Of a stretch of DNA of 64,000 nt, positions 51,199 to 62,411 are shown piece by piece. The stretch is from the NCBI RefSeq assembly GCF_000187245.1, contig NC_027862.1:1266268-1330267 (forward strand). The letters run 5' to 3'. Within the stretch, counting starts at the first letter, position 1, and each line of letters starts with the position of its first letter. The notes beneath the pieces are model-generated. The model was not told where the DNA came from. It saw nothing but the letters and a program-made list of their open reading frames with translations, and ran no database searches. The position numbers were made by a program, and so were the translations under genes. The DNA comes from Ogataea parapolymorpha DL-1. Taxonomy: Eukaryota; Ascomycota; Pichiomycetes; Pichiales; Pichiaceae.

Positions 51199-51909
51199 TT
51201 ACTGCGTCTGTCCTAGAAATGCCAGTCTTTCCATGTAGAACATATCATCGAATCGGCAAATCTCGGGAAGGCCAAGTTCCACAACGTGGCCCTCCTGATG
51301 GAATTCATCATTGATTCTCTTCAGCTGCATCGACTCCTCCTCTGTAAATTCCTCGTTCAAATACGCGATAGTCAAGTGAAATTTATACGACTCGATACTA
51401 GGCAGCGGGATGCTCAATGCGTTCGCGATGCCTATGCGCAATTTCTTGATCTTCTGTTCCTCTTTCTCATCCACAGGCAACAAAGAAACTTTCCATGTAT
51501 CCATCCCCCCATGAGACGTCTGCTCAACGTAGCTCTTGTCGACCTGAAGCCGAATGGGCAAGTCAATCTCAAATGGTGTCTCGGTGAGCATCTTCACCAT
51601 CCATGCATTGCACTGTTCCATAGGCAAACTCCGTGGTAGATCCTTTGGCCAACTATCAGATTGGCGCTTGTACTCGTGCATGCAGTCAAAAATCGTCATA
51701 TGAAGACTCGACGACGGCAGCATGCTTATTTTATTTTTGAAAAGTAGAATAGGAAAGGCCCTGTAGAAGTCTAGCAGCCTTTTGAACAGCCCCCGAGCAT
51801 TACCCTGCTGAGGCAAATGGCATACAACAGTGTTGCCTGGAAACTTGTTAACTGTACCGTCGGCGTTGAATTTTCTACCCATCTTACTCAAAGATATACC
51901 AGGTGGCAT
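51199..51909 (-). CDS. 2H phosphoesterase-superfamily protein (DUF1868-like)
   Basis: From ATG 51909 the product is 236 residues; an ATG at 51882 (MGRKFNADGTVNKFPGNTVV) is an equally reasonable start. Two H-x-T motifs, H70-M-T72 in SSLHMTIFDC and H178-L-T180 in YKFHLTIAYL, are the catalytic signature of 2H phosphoesterases such as 2',3'-cyclic phosphodiesterases and tRNA ligase CPDs. The KFNADGTVNKFPGNTVVCHL opening is characteristic of the DUF1868 branch, found in bacteria and scattered fungi. The substrate is unknown. It lies 52 bp downstream of the Zn2Cys6 regulator on the same strand. Confidence 0.8.
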   Translation of the reverse strand: MPPGISLSKMGRKFNADGTVNKFPGNTVVCHLPQQGNARGLFKRLLDFYRAFPILLFKNKISMLPSSSLHMTIFDCMHEYKRQSDSWPKDLPRSLPMEQCNAWMVKMLTETPFEIDLPIRLQVDKSYVEQTSHGGMDTWKVSLLPVDEKEEQKIKKLRIGIANALSIPLPSIESYKFHLTIAYLNEEFTEEESMQLKRINDEFHQEGHVVELGLPEICRFDDMFYMERLAFLGQTQ

Positions 51910-51961
51910 AAAAAAAAATGCGTCCGGGGAAATCTTCGCGGTTCGAGGAGTGCACTTTTTA

Positions 51962-53890
51962 TCAGATATCCGACATGGTGGCAGCAGACTCGCCTCCAAA
52001 AAAGAAGTCCAGGAATTCGTACCAGCCCTTGTCGTCCAGCATTGCTGATGTAACGTTAAAGCCGTTCTCAGCATCTGTGAGAGGATCGCCTTCAGTAGGC
52101 GCAAAATCTCCATCTGTGCTGTTTGGGTGTGATGTTTCGTTGCCAAAACGTAGATATTGGGACTCAGTGATGTCTGGCACAATACGGTTTCTGGAAAGTT
52201 TGGAGCTGTACGGGTTTGCAATTTCCATCTCTTTCAAAAACTCGCGGAGCGATATTGCCTCGAGAGTTTCATTTTCCAGGTGGTCCAATCGCACTTTGGA
52301 CACGAGATAGCAGAGTTTTTCTATTATGGCAAAGCCAATTTTCACGGTGAAGTATGATTGCAATTTTTTGATGGTAGGGAATGTGCGCTTGACAGATTCA
52401 AGCTTGTATTTGTCGTCCTCGCTTTTGAAAAGTAGCATGTCTAAGAGCACAAACAAACACGCATAAATCAAATGTTGTGCAACAATCCAGTAGCGATTAT
52501 AAAAGGCAGGTATCCCAGTAGATGTGCTGTGAAAAAGTAGCTGCGTTGCAACCTCCAGACACTGGGGGCGGTATTGTTTGGCCCAGTCTTGGGTGCCAAC
52601 AAGAGATTGCAGGCGAATACCGATCTCTAGCCGTTCACGAGTGATGGAGGAAAATAAAAGGTATTTTGCGTACTGCGCGATTGATTTATCCCCAGGAGAG
52701 AATCCCTCAGAACCAAAGTACGTGTCTAATTTGGACCTCAGCACCTTCATTCTTTCAAGGCAAGAGACCAGTTCGGTAGCAGTGGGCTTCTCGTAACTTT
52801 CGTGCTTCAACTGCGCGAGTTCCACCATCATGCGCTCATACATTATGCCTGCAATTTCATCATTCTTGCAGGCTTCCGGAAATGTAAGAGGGCCGGGAAT
52901 CACCTTTTCGAGAAGCACGTCAGATGAGATTATGGATGGCAATGGGGTTGAGAAGTCAGCAATATATCTTTTGGGATAATTGCTTAATGAGTCTATAATC
53001 ATGAGGCTGTAGAAGAGACGTTTCAAGACCTCGCTTTGATAATCTGGAGCGCTGTCGGGTTGCAGTTGGTCCAGTCCCAAATTCTTTGCTGCCTCAACAG
53101 AAATGCGGAGAAGAGATTTGTGCAAATACGTGCTGCCTAATGCATGTAAACCCATTGAGAGGACACAGAAGACCTGGATACATCGTACGTCGGCATGTTC
53201 CAATGCCCCAGCCCTGAAGAGACAGTCCAGTGAGGCTCGGAAGAAAATTGCCGAAAACTCAGAGAGTTCTGCTTCTGTGTAAGTGAGATCTGATTGAATC
53301 TCATGGACTCCAAAATACATGCCTGTGGACAAGTTGGCATAAAGTAGTGACATCCAATAGTAGTAGTCTTTCGACGATTTGGTTTTGAGGGTATTATTAC
53401 TGGTGTGGTTTAGGCAGGCTGGGTTCTTAGATACATGAACTTCCCAGAAATTGTCGTGGTCCTTGAGAAATAGCTCGTTCACAACTCCTTGATGAATAAA
53501 AGTTGTGTAATTGCATGCACATTCGCATATCTTCCTAGAAAGCGCAGGAGTCAATTTATTAATTAATGTCGGAAACTGGTTCATATACTGATCCCATCTA
53601 TTGTACTTGAGCAAATCGTCCACAGGGACTAGGCCCTTGATTTGGGCTCTTCCATATGTCAGCAATTTGAGAGAGTACAAGTAATGTACTATTTGTCTAT
53701 TGTTGAATAGGTTTGACTCAGTATCAGTATTTGACTCTGGAAGTTCAGGCGATGGAACCAAGTTTCGTCGACGACACTCATGGGTGGTTTTCCGCTTTAT
53801 GCAGTTCTTGCAAGGAATAGTTTTGTCACACTTGACTTTTCGTATAGTACAGGGAATGCACGCAAGAGACGGACGGCTCTTAATTTTCAT
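51962..53890 (-). CDS. Zn2Cys6 transcription regulator, 642 residues
   Basis: A binuclear zinc cluster lies at residues 11-39: C11-x2-C14-x6-C21-x5-C27-x2-C30-x8-C39, with the basic stretch IRKVKCDK. A long helical middle region of fungal transcription-factor type follows (about 90-560, including FRASLDCLFRAGALEHADV and LGLDQLQPDSAPDYQSEVLK). The acidic C-terminus could activate transcription (TDGDFAPTEGDPLTDAENG). It begins 42 bp after the stop of the deaminase gene on the same strand. Regulators of this class often control neighbouring catabolic genes through CGG-type sites, and two TCGGCCGA elements lie in the deaminase/permease promoter. The specific orthologue is not recognised. Confidence 0.88.
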   Translation of the reverse strand: MKIKSRPSLACIPCTIRKVKCDKTIPCKNCIKRKTTHECRRRNLVPSPELPESNTDTESNLFNNRQIVHYLYSLKLLTYGRAQIKGLVPVDDLLKYNRWDQYMNQFPTLINKLTPALSRKICECACNYTTFIHQGVVNELFLKDHDNFWEVHVSKNPACLNHTSNNTLKTKSSKDYYYWMSLLYANLSTGMYFGVHEIQSDLTYTEAELSEFSAIFFRASLDCLFRAGALEHADVRCIQVFCVLSMGLHALGSTYLHKSLLRISVEAAKNLGLDQLQPDSAPDYQSEVLKRLFYSLMIIDSLSNYPKRYIADFSTPLPSIISSDVLLEKVIPGPLTFPEACKNDEIAGIMYERMMVELAQLKHESYEKPTATELVSCLERMKVLRSKLDTYFGSEGFSPGDKSIAQYAKYLLFSSITRERLEIGIRLQSLVGTQDWAKQYRPQCLEVATQLLFHSTSTGIPAFYNRYWIVAQHLIYACLFVLLDMLLFKSEDDKYKLESVKRTFPTIKKLQSYFTVKIGFAIIEKLCYLVSKVRLDHLENETLEAISLREFLKEMEIANPYSSKLSRNRIVPDITESQYLRFGNETSHPNSTDGDFAPTEGDPLTDAENGFNVTSAMLDDKGWYEFLDFFFGGESAATMSDI

Positions 53891-53932
53891 AGGTTTATGG
53901 GGCTTATTATATAGATAGATAAGAAAAAATTA

Positions 53933-54973
53933 TTATAATGACTCGAAATATTTATTGCATTCGTGTTTCCACTTGGATTTTAAATCCTCGTCCACCCACG
54001 CGCTATCAATCGCGTTATATGCAAACCTTTTGAGGTCTGGAATGGTTGCACCGAAACATTCCACCATCATCATCCATGCTTTCGTAGGCTCAACACAATG
54101 GAACGAAGGATCATCTGTGTTTGGATAGATATTAAGCCCAAGCTTGATCATCTTCCTGATAGGGTGCTTTTGGGCCCATTCTTCCGGATTAAACAACCTA
54201 AGATAATACGAATTCGTAGGAACAACGCTAATTGATCGCTGTTCTTCCAAAAATTGGTCAACCAGTTCTTGATTATCAATGATTGTGTATCCGTGATCAA
54301 CCCGGTCTGCGTGGATGGTGTTGGCAACGTAATCTATATTATTCCACGGCATGCCAAACTCACCGGCGTGAGCGGTGATCTTGTACCCTTCACTTTTCGC
54401 ACGCTTGAAAGTATCCTCAAATAGCTCTGGAGGGAAGCCATCTTCCTTGTAATCAATTCCAATACCGATCGTCATTGATGACGGAGACTCCAGCATCCAA
54501 TCCAACATTTGTGCAGCTTTTTCTGGTTCGGCTTGTCGGTCAATAGCGCATATGAGCCTGCTCATAATTCCGATCTCTTTCTCTGAATCTATCATAGCGT
54601 CATGGATTGCCTTCTGTGCTGAAGCAAACGGAATTTTAGATTCCAAAACCGTTCCGGTAGGATTCCAGGAGAGCTCTATATAAATGACATTATGGCTCTT
54701 TGCGACCGCCAGATGCTCCTTCGTGATTCTATATAGATCTTCAGGGAACTTGATCAGATCAGAGTCGAGTCCTCTGAAAATTGCCAGGACCCCAACTGGT
54801 TTGGTACCTCTAATGTAGAAACGCTCTATTTGCTCATCCGTGAACGGCTTGCCAGCACGGTTATTGAAATAGGTGATTGTGTCCTTGCAAATGGTGCCAT
54901 ACAAGTGACAATGAGTCTCAACCTTAGGTAGGTTATGACAGATCTCGTACAAAGAAGTCTTATTCCTAGTCAT
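53933..54973 (-). CDS. Adenosine/adenine deaminase-family enzyme with an atypical substrate motif
   Basis: The 346-residue protein has the full metal and catalytic set of the adenosine deaminase family: H21-x-H23 near the N-terminus, H202 and E205 in TAHAGEFG, H228 in RVDHGY and D287/D288 in NTDDP. Length is like yeast Aah1 (347). The N-terminal motif reads HCHLYGT; adenosine deaminases have HxHLDG and adenine deaminases HxHLEG at the substrate-contacting position. The strand that is usually CPxSN reads VPTNS. A different purine or amine substrate is therefore likely. It is divergent from a DAL5-type permease, with shared palindromes between them. Confidence 0.85.
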   Translation of the reverse strand: MTRNKTSLYEICHNLPKVETHCHLYGTICKDTITYFNNRAGKPFTDEQIERFYIRGTKPVGVLAIFRGLDSDLIKFPEDLYRITKEHLAVAKSHNVIYIELSWNPTGTVLESKIPFASAQKAIHDAMIDSEKEIGIMSRLICAIDRQAEPEKAAQMLDWMLESPSSMTIGIGIDYKEDGFPPELFEDTFKRAKSEGYKITAHAGEFGMPWNNIDYVANTIHADRVDHGYTIIDNQELVDQFLEEQRSISVVPTNSYYLRLFNPEEWAQKHPIRKMIKLGLNIYPNTDDPSFHCVEPTKAWMMMVECFGATIPDLKRFAYNAIDSAWVDEDLKSKWKHECNKYFESL

Positions 54974-55306
54974 GAGGAAAAAAAAGAGCCCTGTTAAGAT
55001 AAATACTGCATTTAATCAATTTTGACTCTAAAACCTCGGCCGACCAGCACAGCCATGATTGATATGAGTTTCGGCCGAGATTTATTCTGCTGATTTCTAG
55101 TGAACGAGGGACCTTAGAGACTCTGGGAAAGTGGCATCATATTCAGAAGAAAGTACTAGTTCTATCCTCAGAAAAGTTTCGATTTTGCATCATCAAAACT
55201 GGCCCCAATAGATCTATCGTTATTTAGGCTGATAAGACTTGCAGATAAAAATCTCGCGTTAACAAAAAAAAAGTATTTAAGTGATGAAAAAATCCTTATT
55301 TCGTTA
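54974..55306. promoter_or_regulatory. Shared deaminase/permease promoter with two TCGGCCGA palindromes and GATAA sites
   Basis: TCGGCCGA occurs at 55036-55043 and 55071-55078, 35 bp apart; each contains CGG facing CCG with no spacer, as expected for a dimeric Zn2Cys6 factor. GATAAG lies at 55231-55236 and GATAAA at 55244-55249 and 54999-55004; paired GATAA elements mediate nitrogen-catabolite control of DAL genes in yeast. A TATA-like AAAGTATTTAAG lies about 35 bp before the permease ATG. Confidence 0.65.
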
Positions 55307-56689
55307 ATGGATAACTATATTGAAAAAGAGACCATGAGCGATAAGGACGAGCTTCATGTTTCTGAAGCTTCCGTCTACATCGACAAGGAGAAGCTTTTCC
55401 GCAAAGTGGATCTCCGTATTCTCCCGCTGATGATGGTCACTTACGGATTGCAATTTATGGATAAGCTGGCTTTGGGTCAGTCTTCAGTTTTCGGTCTCAA
55501 AAAAGATTTAGGGCTAGTGGGTCAAGATTATTCATGGTCTTCATCGATCTTCTATTTCGGTTATATGTTTGGAAACTTGGCGAGTGTCAGAGTGCTTCAA
55601 ATCGTGCCAATTGCAAAATTTGTCTCAGTCGCCGTCTGTCTGTGGGGTATCACGCTAGCTTGCACAGGAGCCTGTGAAAATTATGCAGGTATTCTTGCTG
55701 CCAGATTCTTCCTAGGCCTTCTTGAGAGTGTTGTCAGTCCTTCGTTTGTGCTGATCACGGGTATGTGGTGGAAGCCAGAACAACAATCTGCCAGATCGGG
55801 TATCTGGTTTGCCGGTAACGACGCCGGTGCAATTGTTGGATCTTTCTTGTCGTTTGGTCTGGGTCACATCACCGGAAAGTTATCCCCATGGAGATACATT
55901 TTTATCGTTTATGGGTGCATCACATTTGTGTGGAGTTTCGCTATCTTCTTTTTCCTCCCAGATTCTCCATCTAAGGCCAGTTTCCTTACAGAAGCTGAGA
56001 AGCAGTATTATGCTGAAAATATGAAGAACCAAAAGGTGGAGAATGACTGGAGTTGGGACGAGTTTTTCTCCTGTGTGAAAAACATCAACTTCTGGCTTCT
56101 TCTTGGATCCGTTGTGCTTTCTATCTTGCCTAACAGTGGAGTTCAAAGTTACGGAAATATTATCTTGAACAACTTTGGATTCAGCGCCATAAACACCACG
56201 TTGCTCAATTTGCCAGGCTCTATAATTGCCTGGATCGCTATCACTGGATCTGGACTAATTGCCAGTAGAAAGAAAGGGCTCAGATGCTTGATGATCTCTG
56301 TGTGTTGTATGTTTGCAATCATTGGAGGCTCTCTCATTTATAAGGGCCAAACTTTAGGAGCCAAATTGACTGGATTTTATTTCGTGCTAGTTCAGACCGC
56401 AACCTTCCCATTACTGCTGTCGATGGCCTCCTCAAATTTCGTTGGCTCAACGAGAAAAACTGTCGTCAGCAATTCTATGTTCCTCATTTACTGTGCCAGT
56501 AACATTGCGGGACCACAACTTTTCCGCAGCCAAGATGCCCCAACATACACGTACGCTTTCAGATCCTGGGTCATTTGCTTTTGCTTGAACGTCGCTGTTG
56601 CTGTGGCGATGGCCATCAACTCACGCATCCAAAACAAGAGACAACAGGCTTCTTCAGATGGCGTTCCTGAGTTCCAGTACTTATATTAA
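55307..56689 (+). CDS. DAL5-family anion:H+ symporter (MFS)
   Basis: The 460-residue, 12-helix protein has a charged N-terminal tail ending KVDLRILPLMMVTYGLQFMD, the hallmark start of the Dal5/Tna1/Seo1 anion:cation symporter family. LESVVSPSFVLITGMWWKPE (helix 4-5 signature), FFLPDSPSKASFLTEAEK (central loop) and MASSNFVGSTRKTVVSN follow. Yeast Dal5 carries allantoate and ureidosuccinate, and relatives carry nicotinate, biotin or pantothenate. Pairing with an adenosine-deaminase-family enzyme suggests import of a purine-derived or other nitrogenous anion. The stop is only 3 bp from that of the convergent SRPBCC gene. Confidence 0.87.
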   Translation: MDNYIEKETMSDKDELHVSEASVYIDKEKLFRKVDLRILPLMMVTYGLQFMDKLALGQSSVFGLKKDLGLVGQDYSWSSSIFYFGYMFGNLASVRVLQIVPIAKFVSVAVCLWGITLACTGACENYAGILAARFFLGLLESVVSPSFVLITGMWWKPEQQSARSGIWFAGNDAGAIVGSFLSFGLGHITGKLSPWRYIFIVYGCITFVWSFAIFFFLPDSPSKASFLTEAEKQYYAENMKNQKVENDWSWDEFFSCVKNINFWLLLGSVVLSILPNSGVQSYGNIILNNFGFSAINTTLLNLPGSIIAWIAITGSGLIASRKKGLRCLMISVCCMFAIIGGSLIYKGQTLGAKLTGFYFVLVQTATFPLLLSMASSNFVGSTRKTVVSNSMFLIYCASNIAGPQLFRSQDAPTYTYAFRSWVICFCLNVAVAVAMAINSRIQNKRQQASSDGVPEFQYLY

Positions 56690-56692
56690 TTA

Positions 56693-57130
56693 TTAAGCTT
56701 CGCACTTGCTTTTCAAAGCCTCAGTAAATAGTCTAAAATCCTTCTTCAGATCCCCGACAAAGTATAACAGCGGGCCTCTGAGCAATCCCCCAAAGACCTC
56801 CTTATGAACAAACTCTGTTTTGCCGTCTTCCGTAGGGTTGAACTCATAACTGTGTATGCCATTAAAAATTGTGTCATATCCAACATTTCCCTTCCATCTG
56901 AATGCAGACAGAGAGTTTTCAACAACAACTGGGTTGATCCTCAATGTTTTGTTTCCTTCCAAGACAACATCAAGCTTATCTCCCGGAGCAATTGAAGCAG
57001 ATGGCTTCGGCGGATTCGTTTTGATAGACTTCACAAAAGCGGACCATTCGTAATTATCAAAGTCAAGAAAAATTGAACGCACAGTCTCTGGCGCTGCGTT
57101 GATGATAATACTGGTTGAAACTAAAGACAT
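56693..57130 (-). CDS. Small SRPBCC/START-like ligand-binding protein
   Basis: From ATG 57130 (MSLVSTSIIINAAPETVRSI) the product is 145 residues and covers exactly one SRPBCC (polyketide-cyclase/CoxG-like) fold. It has an opening strand plus IINAAPETVRSIFLDFDNY, a middle FRWKGNVGYDTIFNGIHSYE, and KTEFVHKEVFGGLL before the long C-terminal helix (FVGDLKKDFRLFTEALK). In-frame ATG 57196 would add 22 residues not typical of the family. Such proteins bind hydrophobic ligands or act as cyclases/dehydratases; in fungi they are often uncharacterised. Its position in a block of transporters and oxidoreductase suggests a metabolic role. Confidence 0.75.
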   Translation of the reverse strand: MSLVSTSIIINAAPETVRSIFLDFDNYEWSAFVKSIKTNPPKPSASIAPGDKLDVVLEGNKTLRINPVVVENSLSAFRWKGNVGYDTIFNGIHSYEFNPTEDGKTEFVHKEVFGGLLRGPLLYFVGDLKKDFRLFTEALKSKCEA

Positions 57131-57248
57131 AATCACGGATAATCTTATCAATCGTTTTAATTTATACACTTCAAAGAGCACGGAATTCGGAGCCATCTTG
57201 ATGACTAATCGTGTTCGCTCAAAGGCCACTGACTAAGCAACAACAGTG

Positions 57249-61022: not shown

Positions 61023-62411
61023 CTAAATACACCAGGAAAGATTGTGGGCTGGGTGGAGCTCGGACAGCGACAGAAGACCCCCGAAAAGGCGGTCCTCGCA
61101 GAGTTCGCGCAGGAATATGTTCACAACATCCGGGTCTGCCCATTTCGCGGCAGTAATGACATCCATATTTGATTTCACATCGAGGCCAGCATGAAGCATA
61201 ATTCTTGACGCTTCGAATAGTGCAAATGCCAACGTGGTAGTTGTGCGTGAGTTTGCAAGGATATCACTGTTATCGCGTGCAATGGAAGAAATGGCAAGTG
61301 CAAGATCGAGCGACCTTGCCGGCCCCTCAAGTCTATTCAAGTCGCATTGATTGAGCAAAAGCAGGAGATGCATGTTGATGAAGAGAGATCTCTGATTTGC
61401 AGGCAGTGCCGCAACGTTGGCTGCAGAATAGCGGAGATTATCCGGAAGCAAATCCAAAGTCAAATGCATGTCATGAGCGACGTCTTGAAGAGATCCAGAT
61501 CCACGCTCAACGAGTTTCACGGCGTTCAAAGTGTTGTATTTTAGTTGTGCTAGATGCACAACTAGTGAAAAGAGATTAAAGGGTGCAACGTAGCGTGGAA
61601 GCTGGGTGCGAAACGGTGAGGGCTCTGAGGTAGGATTTGTTGATGGCGGATGGATAGATACCAGACTGATATCGCACGAAACGAATTCTGGCACTCCTGC
61701 CGCATATATCTTATCCAGAACAAAAATATTCCAAACCATGCGGCGACGACGCTCTTTTTCAAAAGGGTCCTTGACCCAGTTAAGTTCGTGGTTCAATATG
61801 AGCCCATACGCCATACGGGAAAGCACAGGAATAAGAAGAAAGTGCTTGATCGAGCTGCGTGCGCATATGAGTGTTATAAGAAGCGCTTGAAGATGATCGA
61901 GTGAGGGCACAGATAGTAGAGAGTCCGAAAGCAGTCTCTCGTACCAGTAGTTGGAAAAGCTTACCAGACGGTACTCAGGAACCACGAGATCGAGCGATAA
62001 TCCTGCCACAGCTTTCGCAAGTGGCATGGAAACCTGGCCCTCGCGCAGTTTGGAGATAAATCGCTTATCAAGAAAATTGCCAGCGAAAAACGGCGGATCT
62101 CTACGAATTGTAGATTCGCAGAGCATCTCGATTTCCGAAATTGGAGCCTCATAAAGAGCATCAAGGACTTCAATTGATTGAACTGTCACCGCCGATGGAT
62201 ATTCGCATTTTTTGCCTAATTGTCTGCATCTATCACATGTAGGCTTTGTTCGCGAGCAGCGACGTCGTCCACGTTTGCAGTGAATACAGGCTAGAGAGTC
62301 AGTAGGCTGCGGCTTGTAATAACATGGGACATCTGACTTGAGACAGCGTAAGCACCGCGGCTTGGTTGCATCGCACTGAATCTTGCGGGAACGACAAGCA
62401 AGACACGACAT
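61023..62411 (-). CDS. Transcription regulator with two tandem Zn2Cys6 clusters
   Basis: The 462-residue protein begins directly with two complete binuclear clusters, each C-x2-C-x6-C-x6-C-x2-C-x6-C. The first has cysteines 3, 6, 13, 20, 23 and 30; the second has 42, 45, 52, 59, 62 and 69. Only eleven residues separate them. Each has its own basic face (RSRKIQCD; KRGRRRCSR). A helical middle domain resembling fungal transcription factors follows (about 150-440), including the EKERRRRMVWNIFVLDKIYA element. Most fungal regulators carry one cluster. No orthologue is recognised. The gene is divergent from the YMR226C-like gene across 668 bp. Confidence 0.88.
   Translation of the reverse strand: MSCLACRSRKIQCDATKPRCLRCLKSDVPCYYKPQPTDSLACIHCKRGRRRCSRTKPTCDRCRQLGKKCEYPSAVTVQSIEVLDALYEAPISEIEMLCESTIRRDPPFFAGNFLDKRFISKLREGQVSMPLAKAVAGLSLDLVVPEYRLVSFSNYWYERLLSDSLLSVPSLDHLQALLITLICARSSIKHFLLIPVLSRMAYGLILNHELNWVKDPFEKERRRRMVWNIFVLDKIYAAGVPEFVSCDISLVSIHPPSTNPTSEPSPFRTQLPRYVAPFNLFSLVVHLAQLKYNTLNAVKLVERGSGSLQDVAHDMHLTLDLLPDNLRYSAANVAALPANQRSLFINMHLLLLLNQCDLNRLEGPARSLDLALAISSIARDNSDILANSRTTTTLAFALFEASRIMLHAGLDVKSNMDVITAAKWADPDVVNIFLRELCEDRLFGGLLSLSELHPAHNLSWCI

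What the first reader, a model, noticed from the sequence alone, without database searches (positions are those of the whole stretch)
51962..56689. Possible nitrogen-catabolic unit: Zn2Cys6 regulator, atypical deaminase and DAL5-type permease
Seen: a zinc-cluster regulator, an adenosine-deaminase-family enzyme and a DAL5-type anion permease are adjacent. The enzyme and permease are divergent across 333 bp that holds two identical TCGGCCGA palindromes and three GATAA elements. Established: Zn2Cys6 dimers bind paired CGG triplets, and paired GATAA sites give nitrogen-catabolite control of DAL genes. Inference: imported nitrogenous anion is deaminated, with induction by the neighbouring regulator. 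I know of no described cluster of this make-up.
Basis: partly seen in the sequence, partly recalled or inferred. Interest (0 to 1): 0.75.

Follow-up and report, generated by a model that had tools for sequence, protein, structure and literature searches.

The report
Yeast base-deaminase cluster with bacterial enzyme
In a methanol-using yeast, a deaminase gene that came from bacteria sits with a likely importer and a likely switch gene, and much the same set reappears in distant yeasts, which suggests a portable kit for taking nitrogen from a nucleobase-like compound.

Summary
The paired TCGGCCGA palindromes are real and the only pair 10-40 bp apart in the genome. The three GATAA elements are not above chance. 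By locus tags the genes are linked elsewhere: Lachancea mirantina, of another class of yeasts, has permease, deaminase and regulator within four gene numbers; Brettanomyces nanus has deaminase and permease side by side; Ogataea philodendri has deaminase and regulator two numbers apart. The deaminase is a bacterial gene; its transfer into Dekkera and its presence in Ogataea are already in print (passages). In 13 of 13 loci of Pandoraea and its family the bacterial gene lies with porin, nucleoside hydrolase, LysR regulator and an AZG-like purine permease. That points to a free purine-type base rather than an "anion", although 67 of 80 loci of a wider set have a TctC receptor instead. The exact base is open. 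Best reading: a self-regulated uptake-and-deamination unit built around a bacterial enzyme, perhaps passed between yeasts; a new member of a known kind (yeast metabolic gene clusters). Function, regulation and nitrogen control are untested.

The parts
51962..53890 (-). Zn2Cys6 regulator (642 aa) with Cep3-like middle region and C-terminal LDDKGWYEFLDFFF, kept as LD[DE][KT]GW.EFL.FF in 8 of the 12 relatives found
   Evidence: Zn_clus above cut-off; relatives OGAPHI_006828 64%, LAMI_0B05996g 49%, FOA43_001874 40%
53933..54973 (-). COG1816-type deaminase (346 aa) of bacterial kin; H21, H23, H202, E205, H227, D287, D288 kept; Y25 where paralogues have Glu
   Evidence: best solved match 4gxw, E 4.2e-113, next 1.7e-39; 14 yeast or yeast-like rows one clade 100/99
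54974..55306 (.). Divergent promoter region between deaminase and permease
55036..55043 (.). TCGGCCGA palindrome 1 (CGG-N0-CCG)
55071..55078 (.). TCGGCCGA palindrome 2, 35 bp from the first
54998..55002 (+). GATAA; not above chance
55231..55235 (+). GATAA; not above chance
55244..55248 (+). GATAA; not above chance
55307..56689 (+). ACS-branch MFS permease (460 aa)
   Evidence: LAMI_0B05930g 59%, FOA43_000468 54%, CANARDRAFT_176857 54%; its best long match elsewhere in the own genome is 32%

Best explanation
A three-gene catabolic unit. The ACS-branch permease imports a purine-type nucleobase or a derivative of one. The zinc deaminase, taken long ago from a bacterial donor, removes the exocyclic amine as ammonia. 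The neighbouring Zn2Cys6 protein senses the substrate and, as a dimer on the two TCGGCCGA sites, turns on both divergent genes. Shown: gene content, linkage in several yeasts by locus tag, bacterial kinship of the enzyme, the single site pair, the purine-salvage setting of part of the bacterial homologues. Inferred: substrate class, direction of transport, binding and induction, use as a nitrogen source.
For: Linkage by locus tag: LAMI_0B05930g (permease), 05974g (deaminase), 05996g (regulator); FOA43_000467/000468; OGAPHI_006828/006830; C. arabinofermentans deaminase and permease on contigs of the same length (461,436). Catalytic residues kept. Palindrome pair single in the genome and holding all CGG/CCG of the promoter. 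Of three A_deaminase-related genes found in the own genome, two lie beside an ACS permease.
Against: In 67 of the 80 loci (recounted) the gene is followed by a TctC receptor instead, a class usually tied to carboxylates, and ACS permeases mostly carry anions (both recalled), so an anionic substrate is not excluded. None of the 74 loci outside Pandoraea showed the NCS2 permease. Linkage is not universal: the regulator's relatives in B. nanus and B. naardenensis are not close by locus tag, and no permease was listed for O. philodendri, B. naardenensis or Hyphopichia (best 120 of 330 permease hits shown). Linkage rests on locus-tag numbers, not on DNA. No expression or binding data. The own genome has a uricase but no MoCoBD_1 (xanthine dehydrogenase) match, so a hypoxanthine product might give only one ammonium.
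Confidence: 0.5

Rival explanations
1. The unit imports and deaminates an organic anion (for example a carboxylated aminopurine, pterin or other amino-heterocycle).
For: ACS-branch permease; TctC receptor 16-202 bp downstream of the bacterial gene, same strand, in 67 of 80 loci.
Against: Purine permease and nucleoside hydrolase with the enzyme in 13 of 13 loci of Pandoraea and its family, and nucleoside hydrolase in 15 of the other 74.
Confidence: 0.22
2. It is simply a second adenine deaminase for purine salvage; the permease is an unrelated neighbour and the regulator acts elsewhere.
For: The enzyme shares the PP-loop (GIDYKEDGFPPELF) with the adenine-type paralogues; the Dekkera relative was named adenyl deaminase (PMC3923673 passages); the regulator's relatives in two Brettanomyces species are not near the deaminase by locus tag.
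Against: Permease and deaminase adjoin in B. nanus and lie within three gene numbers in L. mirantina; site pair in the shared promoter; the genome already has an Aah1-like gene (L096); the Glu of the adenine-type paralogues is Tyr, Phe or Leu in 20 of 20 rows of this family.
Confidence: 0.2
3. The unit detoxifies a base analogue or an aminopurine made by plants or bacteria instead of feeding on it.
For: Enzyme pocket unlike the adenine-type paralogues; patchy spread among the yeasts listed.
Against: Nothing tested; many bacterial homologues lie with uptake or salvage genes.
Confidence: 0.05

Closest known systems
DbHAD1, horizontally acquired adenyl deaminase of Dekkera/Brettanomyces bruxellensis (Woolfit et al. 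2007, not held, recalled; PMC3923673 and PMC2459174, passages seen)
   Same: Same enzyme family: 62% identity to the Dekkera protein P0004; [quoted passage not shown] bruxellensis and O. parapolymorpha
   Different: The passages seen speak of the enzyme alone, not of a permease, regulator or cluster
Purine-salvage locus of Pandoraea and its family (porin, nucleoside hydrolase, LysR, NCS2 permease, COG1816 deaminase)
   Same: Same deaminase family beside a regulator and an importer
   Different: Importer and regulator are of other protein families; no nucleoside hydrolase among the yeast genes beside the unit
Yeast metabolic gene clusters such as the DAL cluster and the nitrate cluster of Ogataea and Dekkera (recalled; nitrate cluster also in PMC3923673 passages)
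   Same: Permease and enzyme genes side by side for a poor nitrogen source
   Different: No DAL or nitrate enzyme among the ten window genes scanned; enzyme of bacterial kin
Second unit in the own genome, C4 subtelomere (L095)
   Same: A_deaminase gene beside an ACS permease
   Different: Deaminase 25% identical, with HIEG at the first motif and HCDVG where others have HAGE; neighbours are a proline-racemase-family gene, a sodium:solute symporter and a C2H2 regulator

Membership tests
Classical adenosine deaminase (ADA) | Zinc/catalytic residues HxH, H, E, H, DD | tested here: met
   H21, H23, H202, E205, H227, D287, D288
Classical adenosine deaminase (ADA) | Curated score TIGR01430 (216.55) and the Asp of HxHLDG that holds the ribose (motif and role recalled) | tested here: not met
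   185.2 bits; Y25 here, F, L or Y in 20 of 20 family rows
Adenine deaminase (Aah1 / Pa0148 type) | Glu in HxHxEGT | tested here: not met
   Y25; Aah1-like L096, L095 and L103 all have Glu
Adenine deaminase (Aah1 / Pa0148 type) | Activity on adenine | not testable with these tools
   No assay; part of the bacterial settings makes a free base likely
DbHAD1 / 4gxw family of bacterial kin | Falls in one clade with the Dekkera gene, among bacterial sequences | tested here: met
   14 yeast or yeast-like rows one clade 100/99, 99/97; nearest bacterial branch unresolved, outgroup branches very long
Zn2Cys6 transcription factor | Cluster domain above cut-off | tested here: met
   PF00172 28.2 bits, cut-off 21
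Zn2Cys6 transcription factor | Binds the paired CGG sites | not testable with these tools
   Site pair shown to be single in the genome; binding needs a gel shift
DAL5 / anion:cation symporter branch of the MFS | MFS family and best match to an ACS-type model | tested here: met
   PF07690 above cut-off; TIGR00893 best but below its cut-off
DAL5 / anion:cation symporter branch of the MFS | Orthology to Dal5 or transport of allantoate | not tested
   No Dal5 sequence was at hand; own-genome matches are 32% or less apart from one 63-residue piece at 33%
Nitrogen-catabolite-controlled gene | Excess of GATAA sites in the promoter | tested here: not met
   3 against mean 1.2, P = 0.13; expression untested
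Cytokinin deaminase (Patl2390) | Sequence kinship or N6-isopentenyladenine activity | not tested
   Sequence not at hand; only described in PMC13296781 (passages)
Horizontally transferred gene cluster (Ogataea lineage to L. mirantina) | All three genes reject one clade of the Pichiales-type rows without L. mirantina | tested here: inconclusive
   AU p: regulator 0.011, permease 0.074, deaminase 0.30; the sets were named after the first trees were seen and hold unnamed rows

The most novel reading that the evidence does not exclude
A bacterial deaminase for a modified purine base (for example an N6-substituted adenine such as a cytokinin or N6-methyladenine) was rebuilt in yeast into a self-regulated uptake-and-deamination cartridge by recruiting a fungal permease and a fungal Zn2Cys6 regulator, and the finished cluster was then passed whole between classes of yeasts.
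Probability: 0.2. Interest if true: 0.7.

Novelty: new member of a known kind. Interest (0 to 1): 0.5.

Why it matters
The horizontal transfer of the enzyme was known; what it is for was not told in the passages seen. Showing that it is linked to a permease and a regulator in several yeasts, and that part of the bacterial homologues lie in nucleobase-salvage loci, turns an orphan transferred gene into a testable pathway with a named class of substrates, in yeasts (Ogataea, Brettanomyces) that matter for biotechnology and for wine spoilage. It would also be an example of eukaryotic cluster assembly around a bacterial gene, and possibly of transfer of the assembled cluster.

Tried and rejected
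Nitrogen-catabolite control through GATAA: rejected as evidence, no excess. Adenosine as substrate: made unlikely by the missing ribose-binding Asp (role recalled) and the sub-cut-off TIGR01430 score. Regulon search by single TCGGCCGA sites: 98 places, fewer than the 141 of the reversed control, so not informative beyond the doubled site. Synteny by DNA: no other yeast genome was reachable with the collections at hand; locus-tag numbers had to serve. Identity of LAMI_0B05952g (a number inferred from the step of 22, recalled) and of OGAPHI_006829: could not be read. Kinship to cytokinin deaminase Patl2390: sequence not available; papers 10.1128/EC.00338-06 and PMC3199332 not held. A search for 4gxw found one paper, on tryptophan geometry, nothing on its activity (listing). 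Passages of PMC7052964, PMC6921048 and PMC3866509 were searched: the word deaminase occurs 0 times in each; PMC7052964 says that twelve Brettanomyces orthogroups are predicted transfers from bacteria, and the rows of its table that were shown do not name this enzyme. No paper of the held library was found that describes the permease-deaminase-regulator cluster (searches; listings, of which one search shows 20 of 24,483 and one search shows 20 of 21); subscription journals are not covered. No structure was predicted, since a relative (4gxw) is solved.

Tree detail: the row named L135_Burk holds the protein of L137, so its printed origin is wrong; both loci are from genomes of the Pandoraea family and nothing rests on it. 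The groups tested were chosen after the trees had been seen.
Full report
What is there. Pfam calls them Zn_clus plus a Cep3-like region, A_deaminase and MFS_1, all above cut-off. Regulator and deaminase are only 42 bp apart in tandem; deaminase and permease diverge across 333 bp. The genome holds 8.87 Mb in 7 contigs and the regulator is 99% identical to an Ogataea parapolymorpha protein, so this is that species or a very near one.

The promoter. TCGGCCGA occurs twice in the 64-kb window, both times in this promoter; two in the window is not odd by itself (16 of 100 shuffles). All CGG and CCG triplets of the 333 bp are in these two sites, and CGGCCG twice was seen in 0 of 5000 first-order Markov resamplings; any palindromic 8-mer twice was seen in 1.7%. 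Genome-wide there are 98 single sites and one pair 10-40 bp apart, this one; the reversed control has 141 and one pair. The pair is thus notable because it falls here, not because the word is common. GATAA is at chance level: 3 against 1.2, P = 0.13.

The enzyme is of bacterial kin. Its best solved relative is 4gxw at E 4.2e-113, against 1.7e-39 for the next (that 4gxw is a Burkholderia COG1816 protein is recalled). Of 1877 hits 120 were listed: the first eight are yeasts, one of them an unnamed row close to Brettanomyces (P0005); Hyphopichia comes thirteenth; the other rows that carry an organism name are bacterial (Variovorax, Herbaspirillum and the like) at 49-51% identity. In the tree of 43 rows the 14 yeast or yeast-like rows (9 named, the window included, and 5 unnamed) form one clade at 100/99 among bacterial rows, many of them unnamed; which bacterial branch is nearest is open, and the outgroup branches are very long. 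[quoted passage not shown] bruxellensis and O. parapolymorpha (passages). Woolfit et al. 2007 itself is not held.

The cluster is conserved in part. By locus tags Lachancea mirantina has permease LAMI_0B05930g (59% identity), deaminase 05974g (64%) and regulator 05996g (49%), all on a contig of 809,466 bases; tags of this kind rise by 22 per gene (recalled), so one gene number lies between permease and deaminase. Brettanomyces nanus has deaminase FOA43_000467 and permease FOA43_000468, with its regulator relative elsewhere (FOA43_001874). Ogataea philodendri has regulator OGAPHI_006828 and deaminase 006830; no permease of it was listed. C. arabinofermentans has deaminase and permease on contigs of equal length. 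B. naardenensis has deaminase DEKNAAC101076 and a regulator relative DEKNAAC100921, not close by tag, and no listed permease. Priceomyces has a permease relative (51%) but no deaminase among the listed hits.

Possible transfer between yeasts. L. mirantina belongs to the class Saccharomycetes, Ogataea and Brettanomyces to Pichiomycetes, and no other Saccharomycetaceae protein is named among the listed hits. L. mirantina groups with Ogataea, apart from Brettanomyces, for the deaminase (97/92; 80/93 in the smaller tree) and the regulator (99/96); for the permease it is unresolved and does so weakly (75/82). Holding the Pichiales-type rows together without L. mirantina is rejected for the regulator (p 0.011), borderline for the permease (0.074) and not rejected for the deaminase (0.30). 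Transfer of the whole cluster is therefore suggested by its spread but not proven by the trees.

What the bacteria tell. Of 301 related stretches found in genome contigs the best 80 were kept, mostly Variovorax and kin. In 67 of the 80 a TctC receptor gene follows the deaminase at 16-202 bp on the same strand, 56 of these with a divergent LysR gene within 400 bp; in 6 (all Pandoraea) an NCS2 permease precedes it; 7 show neither, one of them (L062) because its contig ends there. Among 299 genomes of the family of Pandoraea, 53 have the gene at E 1e-80 or better. Of these 53, 30 were cut out as loci, and all 30 have the NCS2 permease directly upstream on the same strand; the 27% paralogue L103 has one downstream (31 of 31). 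For one of them (L134) Pfam confirms Xan_ur_permease, IU_nuc_hydro with a TAT signal just under its cut-off, LysR and porin, and for L015 it confirms TctC and LysR. The NCS2 protein's best solved relatives are AZG1 and AZG2, named adenine/guanine permeases, which are also reported to carry cytokinins (titles in the reference list of PMC8037549). Nucleoside hydrolase also occurs in 15 of the other 74 loci, 10 downstream and 5 directly upstream; NCS2 in none of the 74. A route nucleoside, base, import, deamination is the simplest reading of the 13 loci, so the substrate should be a free purine-type base; the TctC loci leave room for an anion.

Which base. The metal and catalytic residues are kept (H21, H23, H202, E205, H227, D287, D288), but the position that is Asp in adenosine deaminases (recalled) and Glu in the three adenine-type paralogues aligned here is Tyr, Phe or Leu in 20 of 20 rows of this family; DSSE/DSDE becomes DYRE/DYKE, FFDPQ becomes WNPTG, and the CPL/CPM stretch becomes VPTNSYY, VPSNSYY in Hyphopichia. 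One Pandoraea genome and the yeast itself carry separate adenine-type paralogues (L103; L095, L096). So plain adenine is possible, but an N6-substituted or otherwise altered adenine would explain the second enzyme better; a member of the same COG, Patl2390, is a cytokinin deaminase that does not take adenine (PMC13296781, passages). The host has a uricase but no MoCoBD_1 match, so a hypoxanthine product would probably yield one ammonium and then be salvaged.

The permease. It belongs to a family with 34 further matches in this genome (some of them parts of one gene), the best at 32%, so it is not a recent copy of a resident gene; among the listed hits its kin outside yeasts are filamentous fungi at 34-41%. 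Of the three A_deaminase-related genes found in this genome, two lie beside an ACS permease. With about 5000 genes (recalled) chance would give this in well under 1% of cases, though the second pair lies in a subtelomere and such permeases are common near contig ends.

Verdict. Its make-up is best explained as a self-regulated uptake and deamination cluster for a nucleobase-type compound, built around a known transferred bacterial enzyme. The anion part of the reading is weakened and the GATAA part is not supported. The cluster as a whole was not found in the papers held.

Noticed in passing
L095 181-8995 (G000:C4, about 10 kb from the contig end): A second A_deaminase gene beside an ACS permease, with a C2H2/fungal_trans regulator, a sodium:solute symporter and a proline racemase / trans-3-hydroxy-L-proline dehydratase family gene: another candidate nitrogen-catabolic cluster.
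   Followed up: partly
L095 5151-6287: In this second deaminase the HAGE motif of the family reads HCDVG and a stretch is inserted after it, so its chemistry may differ.
   Followed up: no
window 61023-62411: Regulator with two Zn2Cys6 cluster domains in tandem at its N terminus (two Zn_clus stretches), an unusual architecture.
   Followed up: no
window 56693-57196: SRPBCC (Polyketide_cyc2) gene convergent with the permease, the two ORFs 3 bp apart.
   Followed up: no
window 51199-52113: 2H-phosphoesterase (DUF1868) ORF whose likely start lies about 50 bp after the regulator's stop, same strand; whether it belongs to the unit could not be tested.
   Followed up: no
L103: A Pandoraea paralogue of the deaminase (27%) also lies beside an NCS2 permease (37%), so the pairing of COG1816 enzyme and NCS2 permease recurs.
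   Followed up: partly
G000:C3:318721-319572: Uricase present while no MoCoBD_1 (xanthine dehydrogenase) match was found in the genome.
   Followed up: partly
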